From an uncultured Methanomicrobiales archaeon (GTDB lineage: Archaea; Halobacteriota; Methanomicrobia; Methanomicrobiales; Methanospirillaceae): DNA of 64,000 nt. The stretch is from the NCBI GenBank assembly GCA_903832665.1, contig CAILCG010000014.1, positions 124,001 through 188,000 of the forward strand, in the 5' to 3' direction. The position numbers were made by a program, and so were the translations under genes. Below the pieces are notes generated by a model. That model saw only the letters and a program-made list of their open reading frames with translations. It searched no databases and was not told the origin of the DNA. This document shows, in pieces, positions 46,015 to 56,845 of the stretch (position 1 is the stretch's first letter; every line of letters begins with the position of its first letter).

Positions 46015-46158
46015 AGGCGTATTGAAAAATACGTGGGATCTGGTAATACTTAATGTGTGGGGAATGTACGAGTGTAGGATTTTCTCCTGGGCATCACTCA
46101 TTTTTCCCCCCTTCCGCAATCGCTTCTCTTATCACCCTTCCCGCGCAATTTAGTGTAT

Positions 46159-48867
46159 ATGATGCACGAACCGCCGGTAAAAAAGGTCCTCTTCTGGTGT
46201 GAGCAGTGCAATGTGCCGCTGGTGGCGAAGAGCTGTGCGTGCGGTGCCGAGGGAAAAAAGATCGAACTCCTCCAGCCGTACGATGTACGGCCCGCCCTTG
46301 CAGCCGATATGGCACTGGTAAAAAAACTCGTGGTGGAGCGGTTCGGCCCGGTCCCTCTTGCAAAAATTCTGCTCTTTAATAAGACCGGCGGGGTTGATCG
46401 GGCAGACCTCATGATCATGCATGGCGAGCGGTTCGGCTGGCTGACCTTCGATCCCGTATCGCGCACGTTCAGTCTCGACCTTTCTCCTGAAGCGCTCCAG
46501 TTCATTCTCCCGCATGCAACCAAAGGTATCATCGATCTCGATACCCACACGAATATCCGGCAGGAGCAGGGACGTGTTGGCGGGAAACGGATCCTGCTCA
46601 AGATACCAGTCCCTGACGGGACGGTCATTGTAAAATACAAAAACAAGGTCGGCACCGGCATGGTCAGGGATGGATCGATCAAGGTCAAGGAACTCATCAG
46701 CGTTACCCCCAGGACCCCGAAAAATCCCGGCTGGGATGTGGCGATAGAGAAGAACAAGTTCCACTTGAAAAACCTGGAACGCCATGCAATACGGGCGATC
46801 AAACAGCATATCGCAGATCGCCCGACTGCCAATGTCTCTTTTTCCGGGGGAAAAGACAGTACCGCGGTCCTCACGATCGCCTGGAAGGCAGGGGTAAACA
46901 AAGCCTTCTTCATCGATACCGGCCTCGAATTTCCCGAGACAATTGCGTTTGTCGGATCGCAGGATGTAGAGATCATACGAAAGGCGGGCGACTTCTGGCA
47001 GGCTGCGGAAAAGGCCGGACCCCCGGGCAAGGACAACCGCTGGTGCTGCAAGCTCCAGAAACTCCACCCGCTCAAACTCTATCTTGCGGATGTCGGCCCG
47101 TGCGTCACGGTGCAGGGCAACCGCTGGTATGAATCGTGGAACCGGGCGGGTCTGGATGAGACGAGCCAGAACCCGGCCAACCCGCTCCAGCTCAACATCT
47201 CCCCCATCCGGCACTGGCGGGCACTGGAAGTCTTCCTCTACCTCTGGTGGCAGAAGATCGCGATCAACCCGCTGTACGACAAGGGACTCGAACGCATCGG
47301 GTGTTATCTCTGTCCCGCGATGCTCGAGAGCGAGTACGAGGAACTCCGGACCCTCCAGCCGGCATATGCACAGCGCTGGGATGCGTTCCTTGAACGCTGG
47401 GCGGCAAAGAAAGGCCTTCCCGAAGAGTTCTTCCGCTGGGGACTCTGGCGGTGGAGGGAACTTCCCCCCAAGATGCGGGAACTCTGCTCGCTCAAAAAAG
47501 TACCGTATAATGAGGATCATACTCTCCGCACCGGTCCCGCACGGGCCCCCCCGCTGGTGGCGGCTGTTTCAAAGGAAGTAACGGAAACAAAAGTCGTTCC
47601 AGCGGAAACGGACGCAGCAGTACCCGATGACAAAAAAGTCCGGGATGATAAAATACTGGCACCCTCCGGGGATGTACCCGTATGCGAAGAATTTCCCGTC
47701 TCTGCGATACGGAAGGATTTCCCCATCCTGGGAGATCTCAGCTACCTGGATAATGCGGCCACGAGTTTCTCCCCCGAACCTGTGATCGAGTCCATGGTGG
47801 AGTTCGAGCACAATTACCGGGCCAATGTAGGGCGGGGCGTGCACCGCCTCACCCAGATCGCCAGCCAGCGTTACTGGCATGCCCACGAGAAGGTGGCAGA
47901 GTTCATTGGCGGGAAGAACGGCACCTGCGTCTTTACCAAGAATACCACCGAGTCGATCAATATGGTTGCCCACGGGCTTGCATGGTCCCCCGGCGATCGT
48001 GTCATCACCACCATACTCGAACATCACTCCAACCTGCTCCCGTGGCGTGCCCTGGATGACCGGGGAGTGACGGTCGACATCCTCGACCTTGGAGCCGATT
48101 ATTCCCTTGATCCCGATGCACTAAACAAGCTCATCACGCCCGAGACCCGTCTCGTAACGGTCACCCATGCCTCGAATGTGCTGGGCGTAGTCACCCCCAT
48201 CAGGGAGATTGCGAAGTGCTGCCATGATCACGGCATTAAACTGCTCGTAGATGGTGCCCAGACCGTTCCCCATATGCCGGTCGACGTCTCCAAACTCGGC
48301 TGCGATTATTTCGCCTTCTCCGGTCACAAGATGTGCGGCCCGACCGGCACCGGTGTGCTCTGGATGAAAGAGCCGGACCTGGAACCATTCATCCTTGGCG
48401 GGGGGATGGTCGAGACGGTCACCGGCACCGGCTATACGGCCGCCACCGGGTACCAGAAATACGAAGCCGGGACTCCCAATATCGCCGGTGGTATCGGGTT
48501 GGGTGTTGCTGCGGGGTATCTTGAAGCGATCGGCATGGAAAAGATCCAGCGCCACGAAGAGCAGCTTACCACGCGGCTGTTGAACGGCCTGGCACAGAAC
48601 CCGAAAATCCACGTCTATGCCTCCCGGCGTCCGGAAGCCCGCATCGGAGTCGTGTCGTTTACGGTGGATGGTTTCCACCCGCATGAGGTGGCCCAGCAGC
48701 TGGACGAGGCCGCAGATATTCTCGTGCGGTCAGGCCATCACTGCTGCCAGCCCCTGATGGAGTCGCTTGGCCTTCCCGACGGGACCGTACGGGCCAGTCT
48801 TGCGCTCTACAACACCGCAGAAGAGTGCGACATGCTGATTGCCACGTTGGAAGAGATTACCCGGTAA
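46159..48867 (+). CDS. PAPS reductase-type PP-loop protein fused to a SufS/CsdA-type cysteine desulfurase
   Basis: A 902-residue fusion. Residues 10-30 hold a zinc ribbon (WCEQCNVPL and SCACGAEGK); about 105-180 a PUA-like domain; 190-450 a PP-loop domain of the PAPS reductase family with SFSGGKDSTAV (about 227) and cysteines RWCCKLQK and GCYLCPAM; then a charged linker. Residues 517-902 are a class V cysteine desulfurase with PLP lysine in FSGHKMCGPTG (about 723) and the persulfide cysteine in SGHHCCQPL (about 861). The desulfurase would make persulfide from cysteine for transfer in the same chain to a substrate adenylated by the PP-loop, probably RNA given the PUA domain. Two adjacent ATGs start it (46159, 46162); GTG 46153 is possible. 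Confidence 0.93.
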   Translation: MMHEPPVKKVLFWCEQCNVPLVAKSCACGAEGKKIELLQPYDVRPALAADMALVKKLVVERFGPVPLAKILLFNKTGGVDRADLMIMHGERFGWLTFDPVSRTFSLDLSPEALQFILPHATKGIIDLDTHTNIRQEQGRVGGKRILLKIPVPDGTVIVKYKNKVGTGMVRDGSIKVKELISVTPRTPKNPGWDVAIEKNKFHLKNLERHAIRAIKQHIADRPTANVSFSGGKDSTAVLTIAWKAGVNKAFFIDTGLEFPETIAFVGSQDVEIIRKAGDFWQAAEKAGPPGKDNRWCCKLQKLHPLKLYLADVGPCVTVQGNRWYESWNRAGLDETSQNPANPLQLNISPIRHWRALEVFLYLWWQKIAINPLYDKGLERIGCYLCPAMLESEYEELRTLQPAYAQRWDAFLERWAAKKGLPEEFFRWGLWRWRELPPKMRELCSLKKVPYNEDHTLRTGPARAPPLVAAVSKEVTETKVVPAETDAAVPDDKKVRDDKILAPSGDVPVCEEFPVSAIRKDFPILGDLSYLDNAATSFSPEPVIESMVEFEHNYRANVGRGVHRLTQIASQRYWHAHEKVAEFIGGKNGTCVFTKNTTESINMVAHGLAWSPGDRVITTILEHHSNLLPWRALDDRGVTVDILDLGADYSLDPDALNKLITPETRLVTVTHASNVLGVVTPIREIAKCCHDHGIKLLVDGAQTVPHMPVDVSKLGCDYFAFSGHKMCGPTGTGVLWMKEPDLEPFILGGGMVETVTGTGYTAATGYQKYEAGTPNIAGGIGLGVAAGYLEAIGMEKIQRHEEQLTTRLLNGLAQNPKIHVYASRRPEARIGVVSFTVDGFHPHEVAQQLDEAADILVRSGHHCCQPLMESLGLPDGTVRASLALYNTAEECDMLIATLEEITR

Positions 48868-48984
48868 CCCGGCTCCCTTTTTTCGTCGGGCCTCCCTTGT
48901 CTGGCACGATTTAATAGTCCTGCTGCAAATACTGGTGTACTATCGTATCCGGAAATGTTCGCCCGATATCGGAGACACTTACCC

Positions 48985-49785
48985 ATGACCCCAGCCCAAC
49001 TGTCCGACCTTCTTGCCCGCGTGCGAAAGAATCACCCGCTCGTTCACCACATCACCAATTACGTGACGGTCAATGACTGCGCAAATATCACGATCTGTGC
49101 CGGGGGGGCACCGATCATGGCAGATGCCATCGAAGAAGTTGCCGAGATGACGGGCATTGTCGGGGCGCTTGTGCTCAACATCGGGACCCTCAATCACGAC
49201 CAGGTCGAGTCCATGATCGCTGCCGGCCATGTGGCAAATGAGAAGAAGATCCCCATCATACTCGATCCTGTTGGTGCCGGAGCCACCCGTTTCCGGACCG
49301 AAACCGCCCGGCGCCTGCTTGAAGAACTGGATATCACGATCCTCAAGGGAAATGCCGGGGAGATTGGCGTGCTTGCCGGCGCTGACGGCAAGGTGCGTGG
49401 CGTGGATTCAGCGGGGCTCACCGGTGATCCCATCGCGATCGCAAAGGCGTTTGCTGCCAGTTCCGGTCTCACGGTAGCGGTGAGCGGACCCACCGACATT
49501 GTAACGGATGGCAGACGCGTCCTCCTGGTGGAGAACGGTCATCCCATGATGGGCGGAATATCGGGAACCGGATGCATGGCCGCATCGGTGACCGGTGCAT
49601 TTGCCGCGGAATCGGATGATCCTGTCCAGGCAGCGGCAGCCGCACTTGCTGCTTTGGGCATTGCCGGCGAGAGAGCAGCAGCCCGGTCGCGGGGCCCCTA
49701 CACGTTCAAGGTCGCCCTGTTCGATGAACTTTCGCTCCTTACTCCCGCAGAGTTCGGTGCCGCGGCCAAGGTCCGATCCATCTGA
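48985..49785 (+). CDS. thiM: hydroxyethylthiazole kinase
   Basis: A 266-residue ThiM that phosphorylates 4-methyl-5-hydroxyethylthiazole in thiamine salvage. Typical motifs are [15 protein letters not shown] at residues 18-32, the nucleotide region [15 protein letters not shown] and the catalytic cysteine in [12 protein letters not shown]. An upstream ATG at 48955 would add ten residues (FARYRRHLP). thiE follows after ten bases and completes the branch. I see no TPP riboswitch in the short leader. Confidence 0.94.
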
Positions 49786-49795
49786 ACCCCTGTTT

Positions 49796-50440
49796 ATGAA
49801 CCTTGACCTGTACATCATCACCGATGAGAATATTGGACGGGGGCGGACGCATGCGGAGGTTGCCGAGCGGGCGATTACCGGCGGGGCTGATGCAATCCAG
49901 CTCCGGGATAAATTCCGCAGCAGCGGGGAACTGGTCCGGGTCGGGAGGACCCTCCGGGAGATCACCCGCAGGAGTTCAACCCTTTTTATCGTAAACGATC
50001 GGCTGGATGTGGCACTTACCTGCGGGGCTGACGGGGTGCACCTGGGGCAGGGCGATCTGCGGACCGATGTGGCCCGTCAGATCGCACCCCCCGGTTTCAT
50101 CATCGGGGTATCGATCAGCAATCCTGATGAGGCTCTCCAGGCAGAACGGGAAGGAGCGGATTATGTTGCCCTCAGCCCGACCTTTTCCACCGGATCCAAG
50201 GCAGATGCCAGGCCGGGACACGGGCTCGAAATGCTACGGGAGATCCGGAAACGCGTGACGATCCCGGTCATGGCGATCGGAGGAATAACCCGGGAGAATA
50301 TCCGGGAGGTGTTTGCTGCCGGCGCTGACGGGGTTGCCGTCATCTCGGCCGTGGTCGGTGCCGAAGATATCACCGCTGCTGCCCGCGATCTCAAAATGCT
50401 GATAGAGCACTATAAGGGACAGGGCATCCCTGATTCCTGA
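49796..50440 (+). CDS. thiE: thiamine-phosphate synthase
   Basis: A 214-residue TIM-barrel ThiE that joins HMP-PP and thiazole phosphate. Motifs: AIQLRDK (about 34), VNDRLDVALTCGADGVHLGQ (about 66-85), GVSISNPDEA, and the phosphate loop VMAIGGITREN. ThDP made here is the cofactor of ComDE, encoded earlier in the window. The gene is ten bases downstream of thiM and probably translated from the same message. Confidence 0.95.
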   Translation: MNLDLYIITDENIGRGRTHAEVAERAITGGADAIQLRDKFRSSGELVRVGRTLREITRRSSTLFIVNDRLDVALTCGADGVHLGQGDLRTDVARQIAPPGFIIGVSISNPDEALQAEREGADYVALSPTFSTGSKADARPGHGLEMLREIRKRVTIPVMAIGGITRENIREVFAAGADGVAVISAVVGAEDITAAARDLKMLIEHYKGQGIPDS

Positions 50441-53987: not shown

Positions 53988-54268
53988 AAGGATACCTTTG
54001 TCGGGTACTGAATAAACCTATGGAAATAATATTCCCTGATACATGCCCTGTTTGGTGGGACCGTTGCGGTAGCGAGGGGCGGTGCGATTCCATTTTTCCG
54101 CCATTGTTCACCCGCATGGCGCCTGAAGTATGGGCGGGAAATACTTGGTTACGAACCGGTTCATTAATAAAAAAAACAGGTCCGGGAAAAGTCTCAGTAT
54201 CATTATCTGGTGAGAAACCAATGAATAGAGATAGATATTTTTAGGGTTTTTCCGTGTCCGGTAATTTC

Positions 54269-56845
54269 ATGCACCATAAACCTGTCCGTACATTTTCGGT
54301 GAAGGTTCTTCTCTGCACTCTCGTCTTCCTCGTGCTGGTACAGGGAGTTCTTGCGGCAGGAGCGTCTGTTGGCGAATCACACGCAGCCCCCCTCAATCCG
54401 GAATTCATCCGCTACATGGAGGAGAGAACAAACACCTCATCGGTGCAGGCGGATTCTCCGCACCTGAGCCTGATGAGTTCCTCTCTATCTGAAGCAACTG
54501 ACTCCTCGATTTTCCCAGTCGGTTCCCGTAGCCTGGGCTCGATCCCCTCCCCGATATACCACCCGGAACTCAGCGATGTGCAGATGTCTGTATCACCTGC
54601 GGGCTATCGCACTTCCGGGTATCCGGCAAGCTTTGATCTCCGGACGTATGGAAAGGTGAGTCCGGTCAAGGACCAGACATACTTTGGCACCTGCTGGGCG
54701 TTTGCATCCCTCGCATCCCTGGAATCCACCCTGATGCCCGCCGCCACTCTGGATTTTTCCGAGAAAAACCTGGCAAACCTTGCGGGATTTGACGGGGATA
54801 TCCCGAATGGCGGGGGCAATATGTTAATGTCAACCGCGTACCTGACGCGGTGAAATGGCCCCGTCAATGAAACAACCGATCCCTACCCTGTCGACTCCAC
54901 GTGGACTCCTTCAAGTACCTATCCTGCGGTACAGCATGTTCAGAATGTAGTATTTATTCCGTCCCGGACCAACAGGGCCGACACGAGCGCTATCAAGGAT
55001 GCCCTGACGCAATGGGGTGCGGTACACTCATCGCTATTCTGGAATAATTCGTTTTACAATGCCACGTACACTTCTTATCTTCATCCAGCAACCGCCCTGA
55101 ACGGGTATCCCGGCGGGGGACACGCGGTAACCATTGTCGGGTGGGATGACACCTATGCGGCAGGGAATTTTACCACACCCGCTGACGGGCCCGGGGCGTG
55201 GCTGGTAAAGAACAGCTGGGGTCCCGGATGGGGTGCCGGCGGCTTTTTCTATGTCTCGTATTATGACAAGTATTTTGGATCCGTAAAACAAGGAGATGGC
55301 ACCTACAAGGACACGGCGGTGTACCGGGCTGACAGCACATCCCGGTATGACACGATCTACTCATACGAGAGATTAGGACTGGTGAACACGTACTTCGCCG
55401 CTGAACCAAAGATCGGAACGTTTGCCAACGTCTTTACTGCCAATTCTTCAGAAACCCTGCAGGCGGTCGGCTTCTACACCTCCGACCTGAATGTTCCCTA
55501 CACGATTAGCATTTACAAGAATCCGACCTCAGGTCCTGTTGGCGGAATACCCGCGGCCACATTCAGCGGAACTCTCCCCACCATGGGATACAATACTGTG
55601 GTAATACCAGTGCTTCAGCAGGTGCCTGTTATGCCCGGTGACAGATTCTCGGTCGTTGTGCAGGTAACCAATCCGACGAACAATTATCCAATCCCGGTTG
55701 AAGAGAATTACCCGGGGTATATCCATGGCATCGTCTCACAACCCGGCCAGGGATATGCGATCAACAGCAGCGGGTGGACAGACTGGAAAGCAATAGTGAA
55801 TGACAGTCGCCTCTGTCTGAAAGCCTATACCAGTCCCACGCCGCCGGCCGCCGGTTTCACCGGAGCTCCCCTGTCAGGAACAACACCGCTCACCGTGACC
55901 TTCACGGACACGTCGACCTGTATTCCGACCTCATGGAACTGGTCGTTTGGTGACGGGACTTTCAGTACTGCCCGGAACCCGTCGCATACCTACACGGCAA
56001 CCGGATCCTATACCGTGATCCTGAACGCAACGAACGCCACGCCGGCCAGCTACTACCTGACAAGGACCGGTTACATTACGGTCAATGCCGCCCCGGTGGA
56101 ACTCAACCCCAGCGGAGGATCGGACAATACTCCCCCGCCATTGGAGCAGGGAATACCCGGTACCCAGACGGTAAATGTCGGTGGCACGACTACGGTCTCC
56201 CGGGTAACCGTGACCGGGACAGATATCGGCGATCTCATTGTTACCTCGTCGGAAGTATCCGGGCCCGGTAACGGCGTATCCCCTCCCCCGGGAATAGTTG
56301 AAGAATTTCTGGAGATCACTGCGTTACGATATTCTACGATTACCGGGGCAGAGATCGAATTTTCCGTTCCGCAATCATGGCTGGATGCGAACCATTTCAC
56401 CCCGCAGGATATCGTTATGATGCACCGTGTCGGTTCCGGGTGGGTGGCACTCCCCACAACGTTTGTCAGGAGCAAAGACGGGAGGGTGTATTTCACCGCA
56501 ACGAGTACCGGCTTCTCGCGGTTTGCCATCACCGGGCAGGCTGCCTCCATAGTGCAGTCTCCAGCGGTAACGCCCTCGCCAACCATTCAGATATCGGGTG
56601 CCATAACCCCGGCATCCGTCCTACCGATTACCACAGCCACCCCCAGCGTGCCGGTTATCCGTAACCCGGTCGCAGTGCAGACAACGGTTCCGCCAGCGTC
56701 CGTATCTCCGCCAGCCCCCGGGTTTCCGCTCGCAACCCTCGCACTGGCGGGAGCCGGTTGTATTGTGCTCATCGGCAGCGGATTCCTGGTACGGCGATGG
56801 TGGATCCGCCGGCAGAACCCGGCGCTGTTCCGGGAATATGATTAA
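54269..56845 (+). pseudogene. secreted C1A peptidase with PKD and PGF-CTERM, interrupted by an in-frame UGA
   Basis: One continuous frame of 859 codons, with TGA at 54851-54853 (codon 195). Order: signal peptide (LLCTLVFLVLVQGVLA), papain-like C1A domain with cysteine in FGTCWAF (about 140), histidine in GGGHAVTIVGW (about 287) and asparagine in VKNSWG (about 315), a PKD domain (about 527-600), a PGF-pre-PGF domain (about 630-755) and a PGF-CTERM tail (PGFPLATLALAGAGC then RRWW). The sequence around the stop, AYLTR*NGPVNET, suggests a lost tryptophan (TGG to TGA). Only the C-terminal part would be made from an internal start. Archaeosortase would process the intact protein. A GTG at 54254 is an alternative start. 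Confidence 0.82.

What the first reader, a model, noticed from the sequence alone, without database searches (positions are those of the whole stretch)
46159..48867. Single-chain PP-loop, PUA-like and cysteine desulfurase fusion
A zinc ribbon, a PUA-like RNA-binding domain, a PAPS reductase-type PP-loop with CxxC-like cysteines and a complete class V desulfurase are in one 902-residue chain. PAPS reductase is improbable in a chain with PUA and desulfurase; an RNA or small-molecule thiolation enzyme with its own sulfur source is more likely. Because methanogens often lack classical desulfurases, this may be a main entry of cysteine sulfur.
Basis: partly seen in the sequence, partly recalled or inferred. 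Interest (0 to 1): 0.7.

Follow-up and report, generated by a model that had tools for sequence, protein, structure and literature searches.

The report
Sulfur-donor and PP-loop enzyme fusion
A methanogen gene joins a protein that takes sulfur from cysteine to one that probably uses ATP to put sulfur into another molecule; the fusion is already in print, but its job is unknown and its gene neighbours suggest a second customer for the sulfur.

Summary
Window 46159-48867(+) is one 902-residue chain: Cys4 ribbon, weakly supported PUA-like stretch, PAPS-reductase-type PP-loop domain, complete SufS-type desulfurase. It is conserved: 39 of 49 loci from named genomes span both halves. The fusion is already in print.

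An APS/PAPS-reductase role is unlikely: ATP-type SGGKDS loop, ECGLH motif in 0 of 111, ATP sulfurylase in 0 of 100 genomes, CysN over cut-off in 1 of 60; yet M. jannaschii homologues are cited as such reductases. Four invariant cysteines match those of APS reductase. A [4Fe-4S] thiolation enzyme fits best; the substrate is unproven.

New here: the desulfurase half lies beside fdhD in 37 of 72 fused loci and 4 of 4 close stand-alone SufS genes, but the PP-loop half alone does in 0 of 25. Those SufS branch outside all fused ones, so the SufS-FdhD pairing probably predates the fusion. In 6 of 96 fused chains the desulfurase is degenerate.

"Main entry of cysteine sulfur" is not supported: this genome also has an IscS-type desulfurase.

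The parts
46159..48867 (+). fusion gene, 902 aa: zinc ribbon + PUA-like stretch + PP-loop/PAPS-reductase-type domain + SufS-type desulfurase
46198..46242 (+). Cys4 ribbon C14xxC17...C26xC28
   Evidence: read from sequence; C14, C17, C26 46 of 47 (one gap), C28 43 of 47
46576..46698 (+). weak PUA-like beta-strand stretch (residues about 140-180)
   Evidence: indirect only: homologue/paralogue PUA hits mapped onto it; no direct Pfam hit, isolated profile comparison negative
46831..47319 (+). PAPS_reduct (PP-loop ATP pyrophosphatase type) domain, residues 225-387
   Evidence: fold match to APS/PAPS reductases Z about 15, TtuA 10.5, NcsA 10.0
46843..46860 (+). PP-loop motif SGGKDS (229-234), invariant
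   Evidence: 76 of 76 fused, 29 of 29 unfused, 3 of 3 split sequences
47044..47049 (+). C296-C297, half of a candidate [4Fe-4S] site
   Evidence: aligns with the CC of APS reductase 2goy; 76 of 76 fused
47302..47313 (+). C382xxC385, other half of the candidate [4Fe-4S] site
   Evidence: aligns with the CxxC of 2goy; 76 of 76 fused
47521..47685 (+). low-confidence linker between the halves
   Evidence: pLDDT under 50 at residues 462-511 of the full-length model; unconserved
47686..48864 (+). SufS-type cysteine desulfurase half (residues 510-902)
48328..48330 (+). K724, PLP lysine of SGHK
   Evidence: K in 92 of 96 fused domains
48742..48744 (+). C862, catalytic-type cysteine of SGHHC
   Evidence: C in 90 of 96 fused domains; aligns with the SGHHC of solved desulfurases
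48955..49785 (+). ThiM-like ORF directly downstream (start uncertain)
   Evidence: ORF list; homologue downstream in 21 of 72 fused loci; the name thiM is recalled from sequence, no family scan was run on it
49796..50440 (+). ThiE-like ORF (start uncertain)
   Evidence: homologue in 20 of 72 fused loci; name recalled, not scanned

Best explanation
A single-chain sulfur relay. Shown by sequence: the C-terminal half is a SufS-type cysteine desulfurase with its PLP lysine and catalytic-type cysteine, and the N-terminal half is a PP-loop domain with an intact ATP-type SGGKDS loop and the four cysteines that hold the [4Fe-4S] cluster in APS reductase. Inferred: the desulfurase makes a persulfide on C862 from L-cysteine. 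Sulfur is handed to the Fe-S site of the PP-loop half, which adenylates an oxygen of its substrate with ATP and replaces it by sulfur, as TtuA/NcsA/TtcA do. The zinc ribbon and the PUA-bearing paralogue make a nucleic acid, most simply tRNA, the likeliest substrate. A second client is inferred from gene order: in most lineages outside Methanoregula the same desulfurase half probably also feeds FdhD, which sulfurates the Mo/W cofactor of formate dehydrogenase. That pairing probably predates the fusion. In Methanoregula-type loci such as this window the neighbour is thiM-thiE instead, and this genome's fdhD sits in a separate IscS cluster.
For: Desulfurase identity and intact residues. CC and CxxC align with APS reductase 2goy and are invariant. 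The PP-loop is SGGKDS, whereas 2goy shows SGAED and CysD shows SIGKDS in the same set of alignments. ECGLH-like motif after CxxC in 0 of 111. Sulfate activation is missing: PF01747 in 0 of 100, CysN over cut-off in 1 of 60. Second-tier fold matches to TtuA, NcsA and LarE. PUA in the genome's own paralogue. Halves linked as fusion in many genera and as adjacent intact genes in L106 and L112. FdhD beside the desulfurase half: 37 of 72 fused, 4 of 4 close stand-alone SufS, 0 of 9 distant SufS, 0 of 25 N-half-only loci; close stand-alone SufS branch outside all fused ones (support 0.945 and 0.997). E. coli FdhD takes sulfur from a desulfurase (PMC6239281, passages read).
Against: M. jannaschii homologues are cited as biochemically active APS and PAPS reductases (PMC6286981, passages read). 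The nearest folds are APS/PAPS reductases (Z about 15) rather than thiolases (Z about 10). No direct PUA hit in this chain. The desulfurase scores below the curated SufS cut-off (427.2 against 475.1). No substrate is shown. In this genome fdhD is not beside the fusion. The fused desulfurase is degenerate in 6 of 96 and absent in many genomes that keep the N-half, so the relay is not obligatory. Homologues in Methanosarcinales carry a ferredoxin tail instead, which would also suit a reductase.
Confidence: 0.5

Rival explanations
1. A true assimilatory APS/PAPS reductase (CysH type), as the 2018 and 2024 papers label it; the fused desulfurase or ferredoxin tail merely assists with electrons or sulfur.
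For: Pfam PAPS_reduct over cut-off; cluster cysteines and best fold match to APS reductase; M. jannaschii homologues cited as active APS/PAPS reductases.
Against: ECGLH motif in 0 of 111; ATP-type PP-loop; scores far below the reductase cut-offs (TIGR02055 56 against 235.3; PRK02090 59.1 against 154); ATP sulfurylase in 0 of 100 and CysN over cut-off in 1 of 60 genomes, although the N-half is in 149 of 150. The 2018 authors also note that the source of APS/PAPS is unclear.
Confidence: 0.2
2. The chain is mainly a sulfur-donor hub for cofactors: the desulfurase feeds FdhD (Mo/W cofactor) or thiamine-related enzymes, and the PP-loop half thiolates a small molecule rather than RNA.
For: FdhD beside 37 of 72 fused loci in several orientations, ThiM-like in 21 of 72, LarE in 4, NadA in 3; LarE-SufS-FdhD order in L056 and LarE-fusion-FdhD in L046.
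Against: FdhD is never beside the N-half alone (0 of 25), so the neighbourhood speaks for the desulfurase half, not for the PP-loop half; the Cys4 ribbon and the PUA of the paralogue point to nucleic acid.
Confidence: 0.2
3. A DNA phosphorothioation-like enzyme: SspD/DndC/BrxP-type PP-loop joined to an SspA/DndA-type desulfurase.
For: PADLOC matches: BrxP 110.3 bits and SspD 33.2 on the N-half, SspA 197.3 and DndA 189.1 on the C-half.
Against: Present in nearly every genome of the order and in housekeeping surroundings (ThiM/ThiE-like, fdhD; purH and grpE-dnaK-dnaJ beside the N-half alone), unlike mobile defence genes; the desulfurase fits sufS far better (427 bits). Partner genes (DndB/D/E, SspB/C) were not searched for.
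Confidence: 0.07

Closest known systems
CysH-SufS fusion of Methanomicrobiales (cluster 536, PMC11237513; putative APS/PAPS reductase with C-terminal cysteine desulfurylase domain, PMC6286981)
   Same: By description the same architecture and the same order of archaea; read as passages.
   Different: Those papers name it a sulfate-assimilation enzyme and report no link to FdhD in the passages read; no experiment on the fusion is described there.
PRK13795-type archaeal proteins (NF010366-NF010369)
   Same: N-half aligns over residues 9-448 at 380.6 bits; same ribbon, PP-loop and cluster cysteines.
   Different: Full-length members (L136, L138) end in a two-cluster ferredoxin; here that tail is replaced by a desulfurase; score below the cut-off of 745.
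Assimilatory APS reductase (PDB 2goy)
   Same: Domain, fold (Z 14.9) and CC...CxxC cysteines.
   Different: No ECGLH cysteine; SGGKDS instead of SGAED.
TtuA / NcsA / TtcA tRNA thiolases
   Same: ATP-type PP-loop plus cysteine-bound Fe-S site; fold Z about 10 for TtuA and NcsA.
   Different: Different PP-loop subfamily, CC...CxxC ligands, extra ribbon, own desulfurase; this genome has a separate NcsA-like gene (209.8 bits, below its cut-off).
SufS cysteine desulfurase
   Same: Full length, PLP lysine and SGHHC cysteine.
   Different: Fused C-terminally to a PP-loop enzyme; below the curated SufS cut-off; tandem HCC in most members.

Membership tests
assimilatory APS/PAPS reductase | PAPS_reduct domain | tested here: met
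   117.1 bits, cut-off 22.5
assimilatory APS/PAPS reductase | [4Fe-4S] cysteines CC and CxxC (APS type) | tested here: met
   aligned with 2goy, invariant in 76 of 76 fused; that these are the 2goy cluster ligands is recalled
assimilatory APS/PAPS reductase | C-terminal catalytic cysteine in ECGLH | tested here: not met
   0 of 111 sequences; the segments searched end near residue 454; the motif is recalled
assimilatory APS/PAPS reductase | curated reductase model scores | tested here: not met
   TIGR02055 56/235.3, PRK02090 59.1/154
assimilatory APS/PAPS reductase | sulfate activation genes present | tested here: not met
   ATP sulfurylase 0 of 100; CysN over cut-off 1 of 60; APS kinase over cut-off 7 of 60, only 3 with nearly full-length matches
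SufS cysteine desulfurase | Aminotran_5 fold with PLP lysine and catalytic cysteine | tested here: met
SufS cysteine desulfurase | TIGR01979 curated cut-off | tested here: not met
   427.2 against 475.1, so 'SufS-type' is used, not 'SufS'
SufS cysteine desulfurase | cysteine desulfurase activity | not testable with these tools
   no experiment
PP-loop Fe-S tRNA thiolase (TtuA/NcsA/TtcA-like) | intact ATP-type PP-loop | tested here: met
   SGGKDS invariant
PP-loop Fe-S tRNA thiolase (TtuA/NcsA/TtcA-like) | match to the TtuA/NcsA/TtcA family models | tested here: inconclusive
   none among the 25 best of 80 NCBIfam families shown
PP-loop Fe-S tRNA thiolase (TtuA/NcsA/TtcA-like) | RNA-binding domain | tested here: inconclusive
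   PUA clear in the paralogue, sub-threshold in two homologues, not detected here
PP-loop Fe-S tRNA thiolase (TtuA/NcsA/TtcA-like) | tRNA thiolation activity | not testable with these tools
   no experiment
Dnd/Ssp DNA phosphorothioation | DndC/SspD-like PP-loop protein | tested here: inconclusive
   SspD 33.2 bits, DndC 21.8 and 18.3 bits; PADLOC gives no cut-off
Dnd/Ssp DNA phosphorothioation | partner genes DndB/D/E or SspB/C | not tested
   not searched
PRK13795 (NF010366) | full-length score with C-terminal ferredoxin | tested here: not met
   380.6 against 745, residues 9-448 only

The most novel reading that the evidence does not exclude
The ribbon/PUA/PAPS-reductase-like family of methanogens is the missing archaeal tRNA 2-thiocytidine synthetase (s2C, found at position 17 in M. 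maripaludis and P. furiosus tRNA), and in Methanomicrobiales it captured a SufS that had been the partner of FdhD, so that one chain shares cysteine sulfur between tRNA thiolation and Mo/W-cofactor sulfuration.
Probability: 0.1. Interest if true: 0.78.

Novelty: new member of a known kind. Interest (0 to 1): 0.5.

Why it matters
Which enzyme and which sulfur source make thionucleosides in methanogens is open: a 2017 review lists the archaeal s2C32 enzyme as 'to be determined' and the initial sulfur donor as still to be identified (PMC5372739, passages), and s2C was found at position 17 of archaeal tRNAs (PMC7668247, passage). Two papers label this protein family as sulfate-assimilation enzymes in organisms that mostly lack sulfate activation. 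If it is a thiolase with a built-in desulfurase, the annotation is wrong across an order, and a single-gene, single-chain system becomes available to test sulfur transfer. The FdhD link would name a sulfur donor for formate dehydrogenase maturation in these methanogens.

Tried and rejected
Isolated profile comparison of the PUA-like stretch (residues 96-190) with the paralogue: nothing, so PUA in this chain stays weak. C315 as a conserved acceptor cysteine: 73 of 76 fused but T or V in two of three split copies, so not universal. C443: 74 of 76 fused but 9 of 29 unfused; no general catalytic cysteine. Inter-domain arrangement: full-length pTM 0.53, not interpreted. CysN search: 60 of 60 genomes ring, but only 1 over the curated cut-off; the others were taken for translation elongation factors, which was not checked further. 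Literature search for the phrase 'PUA and ferredoxin domains': none; 'FdhD + desulfurase + Methanomicrobiales': one paper, not read. That the FdhD link is unreported rests on these searches only. Trees: several supports are low (0 to 0.6), so the number of fissions is not claimed. The fused/unfused counts are not a random sample: unfused loci were fetched on purpose. In the neighbour count seven of 138 rows were dropped as duplicates and 13 of 85 fused loci because a flank was under 1 kb.

Full report
What is there. The window frame 46159-48867(+) encodes 902 residues without interruption. Pfam sees a PAPS_reduct domain (225-387) and an Aminotran_5 domain (529-893) over cut-off. NCBIfam places the N-half closest to PRK13795-type proteins (NF010366, 380.6 bits over residues 9-448, cut-off 745) and the C-half closest to SufS (TIGR01979, 427.2 bits, cut-off 475.1). 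The C-half aligns end to end with solved cysteine desulfurases (best E 2.7e-101). The N-half model is confident (pLDDT 90.2); its PP-loop part matches APS/PAPS reductases best (Z about 15), then FAD synthases and GMP synthetases, then TtuA (10.5), NcsA (10.0) and LarE (9.8).

Conservation. In named genomes 39 of 49 matched loci cover both halves; four more (L017, L041, L044, L058) are cut by contig ends; the remaining six hold only one half or are cut. One of the 39, L050, carries a frameshift in the N-half. In the order, 149 of 150 genomes have an N-half match; in the phylum sample 91 of 246. Outside the order the three homologues I looked at end in a two-cluster ferredoxin (L136, L137, L138). 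Among 110 distinct N-half sequences besides the window, 75 are fused, 3 split neighbours, 29 unfused and 3 undecided; the sample is enriched for unfused cases.

Not a sulfonucleotide reductase, probably. The four cysteines C296, C297, C382 and C385 align with the CC and CxxC of APS reductase 2goy and are invariant in 76 of 76 fused and 29 of 29 unfused sequences; one split copy (L112) has C297S. But no sequence of 111 has an ECGLH-like motif after CxxC, the PP-loop is the ATP-type SGGKDS, and sulfate activation is missing: ATP sulfurylase in 0 of 100 genomes, CysN over cut-off in 1 of 60, APS kinase over cut-off in 7 of 60, of which 3 are nearly full length. Against this reading stands the report that M. 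jannaschii homologues reduce APS and PAPS (PMC6286981, passages read; the underlying papers were not read).

RNA or not. The Cys4 ribbon is nearly invariant. A PUA domain is certain only in the paralogue of the same genome (G000:C16:119536-120891; Pfam 69.1 bits); it maps to residues 125-178 of the window protein. Two Methanosarcinales-type homologues give sub-threshold PUA hits mapping to residues 140-168. The window protein itself gives none, and an isolated profile comparison failed. RNA as substrate is therefore an inference.

The desulfurase half and FdhD. Among 85 distinct fused loci, 72 have at least 1 kb on both sides. FdhD lies within 1.5 kb in 37 of 72: downstream convergent 21, downstream same strand 8, upstream same strand 4, upstream opposite strand 2, two not assigned by the script. 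A ThiM-like gene lies there in 21 of 72, LarE in 4, NadA in 3; 12 of 72 have none of the genes tested. FdhD was confirmed with NCBIfam (TIGR00129 150.5 bits, cut-off 140.9) and LarE with TIGR00268 on representative proteins. Of 13 stand-alone SufS-like loci, the four close ones (L056, L195, L196, L197) all have FdhD directly downstream, and the nine distant ones (44-48% identity) have none. None of 25 loci with the N-half alone has FdhD; many of these sit between purH and grpE-dnaK-dnaJ. In a FastTree tree the four close stand-alone SufS branch outside all fused ones (support 0.945 and 0.997), and the split pairs fall inside. The simplest history is a SufS-FdhD pair first, then capture of the N-half, then local fissions and losses. 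FdhD takes sulfur from IscS in E. coli (PMC6239281, passages read), so FdhD is a plausible client of this desulfurase.

Degenerate cases. Of 96 distinct fused desulfurase domains, 92 keep K724 and 90 keep C862; the six that lost the cysteine are L184, L051, L052, L176, L192 and L193. None of them has FdhD in reach, although L192 and L193 have short flanks and test this poorly. The N-half motifs stay intact in L038, L051, L052 and in L085, the G002 copy. The N-half therefore has a role of its own.

This genome. Besides the fusion it has an IscS/NifS-type desulfurase (TIGR03402 612.4 bits, cut-off 530.75) followed by an IscU-like gene (name recalled), in a cluster with nadA-like, NcsA-like, fdhD and larE genes about 48 kb upstream of the fusion, and a third class V homologue at C14:327718. 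So the fusion is not the only route for cysteine sulfur.

Prior art. PMC6286981 (2018) mentions methanogen APS/PAPS reductase homologues with a C-terminal cysteine desulfurylase domain (passages). PMC11237513 (2024) reports cluster 536, CysH fused to SufS, exclusively Methanomicrobiales, with unfused gene sets in four assemblies (passage). A search for CysH + SufS + Methanomicrobiales found only that paper. The architecture is therefore known; the FdhD link, the order of events and the degenerate desulfurases were not in the passages I read.

Verdict. A real, conserved, already published fusion. The best reading is an Fe-S PP-loop thiolation enzyme with a built-in desulfurase whose older partner was FdhD; the substrate remains to be shown.

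Noticed in passing
G000:C16:119536-120891 (L127): A second, unfused ribbon-PUA-PAPS_reduct protein (473 aa, 38% identical to the N-half) in the same genome, close to the PRK13795.1-3 cut-off (535.6 of 588).
   Followed up: partly
L153 (G000:C14:116001-124500): A sulfur-trafficking cluster just before the window: nadA-like, NcsA-like PP-loop, fdhD, larE, iscS, iscU-like and an E1-like gene (nadA, iscU and E1 names recalled).
   Followed up: partly
L038, L051, L052 and L133/L176: Fused chains whose desulfurase lost the catalytic cysteine and in some the PLP lysine while the PP-loop half stays intact.
   Followed up: partly
L117, L118 and G111:C2:70502-71827: Genomes G039, G007 and G111 hold both the fusion and a second, unfused N-half of about 47-53% identity.
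   Followed up: no
G343, G251, G284, G335, G255: One genus outside the order has N-half homologues in open frames of 757-828 aa matching only residues 181-443; their extra domain was not examined.
   Followed up: no
L104: An unfused N-half with an IscS-like gene 294 bases away, on the opposite strand.
   Followed up: no
window 46150-47520 (-): A 456-aa antisense open frame over the N-half, probably a shadow of the GC-rich codon pattern.
   Followed up: no
window 54254-54853 (+): An ORF with a signal-like start and a CWAFASLASLES stretch resembling a papain-type protease (motif recalled).
   Followed up: no
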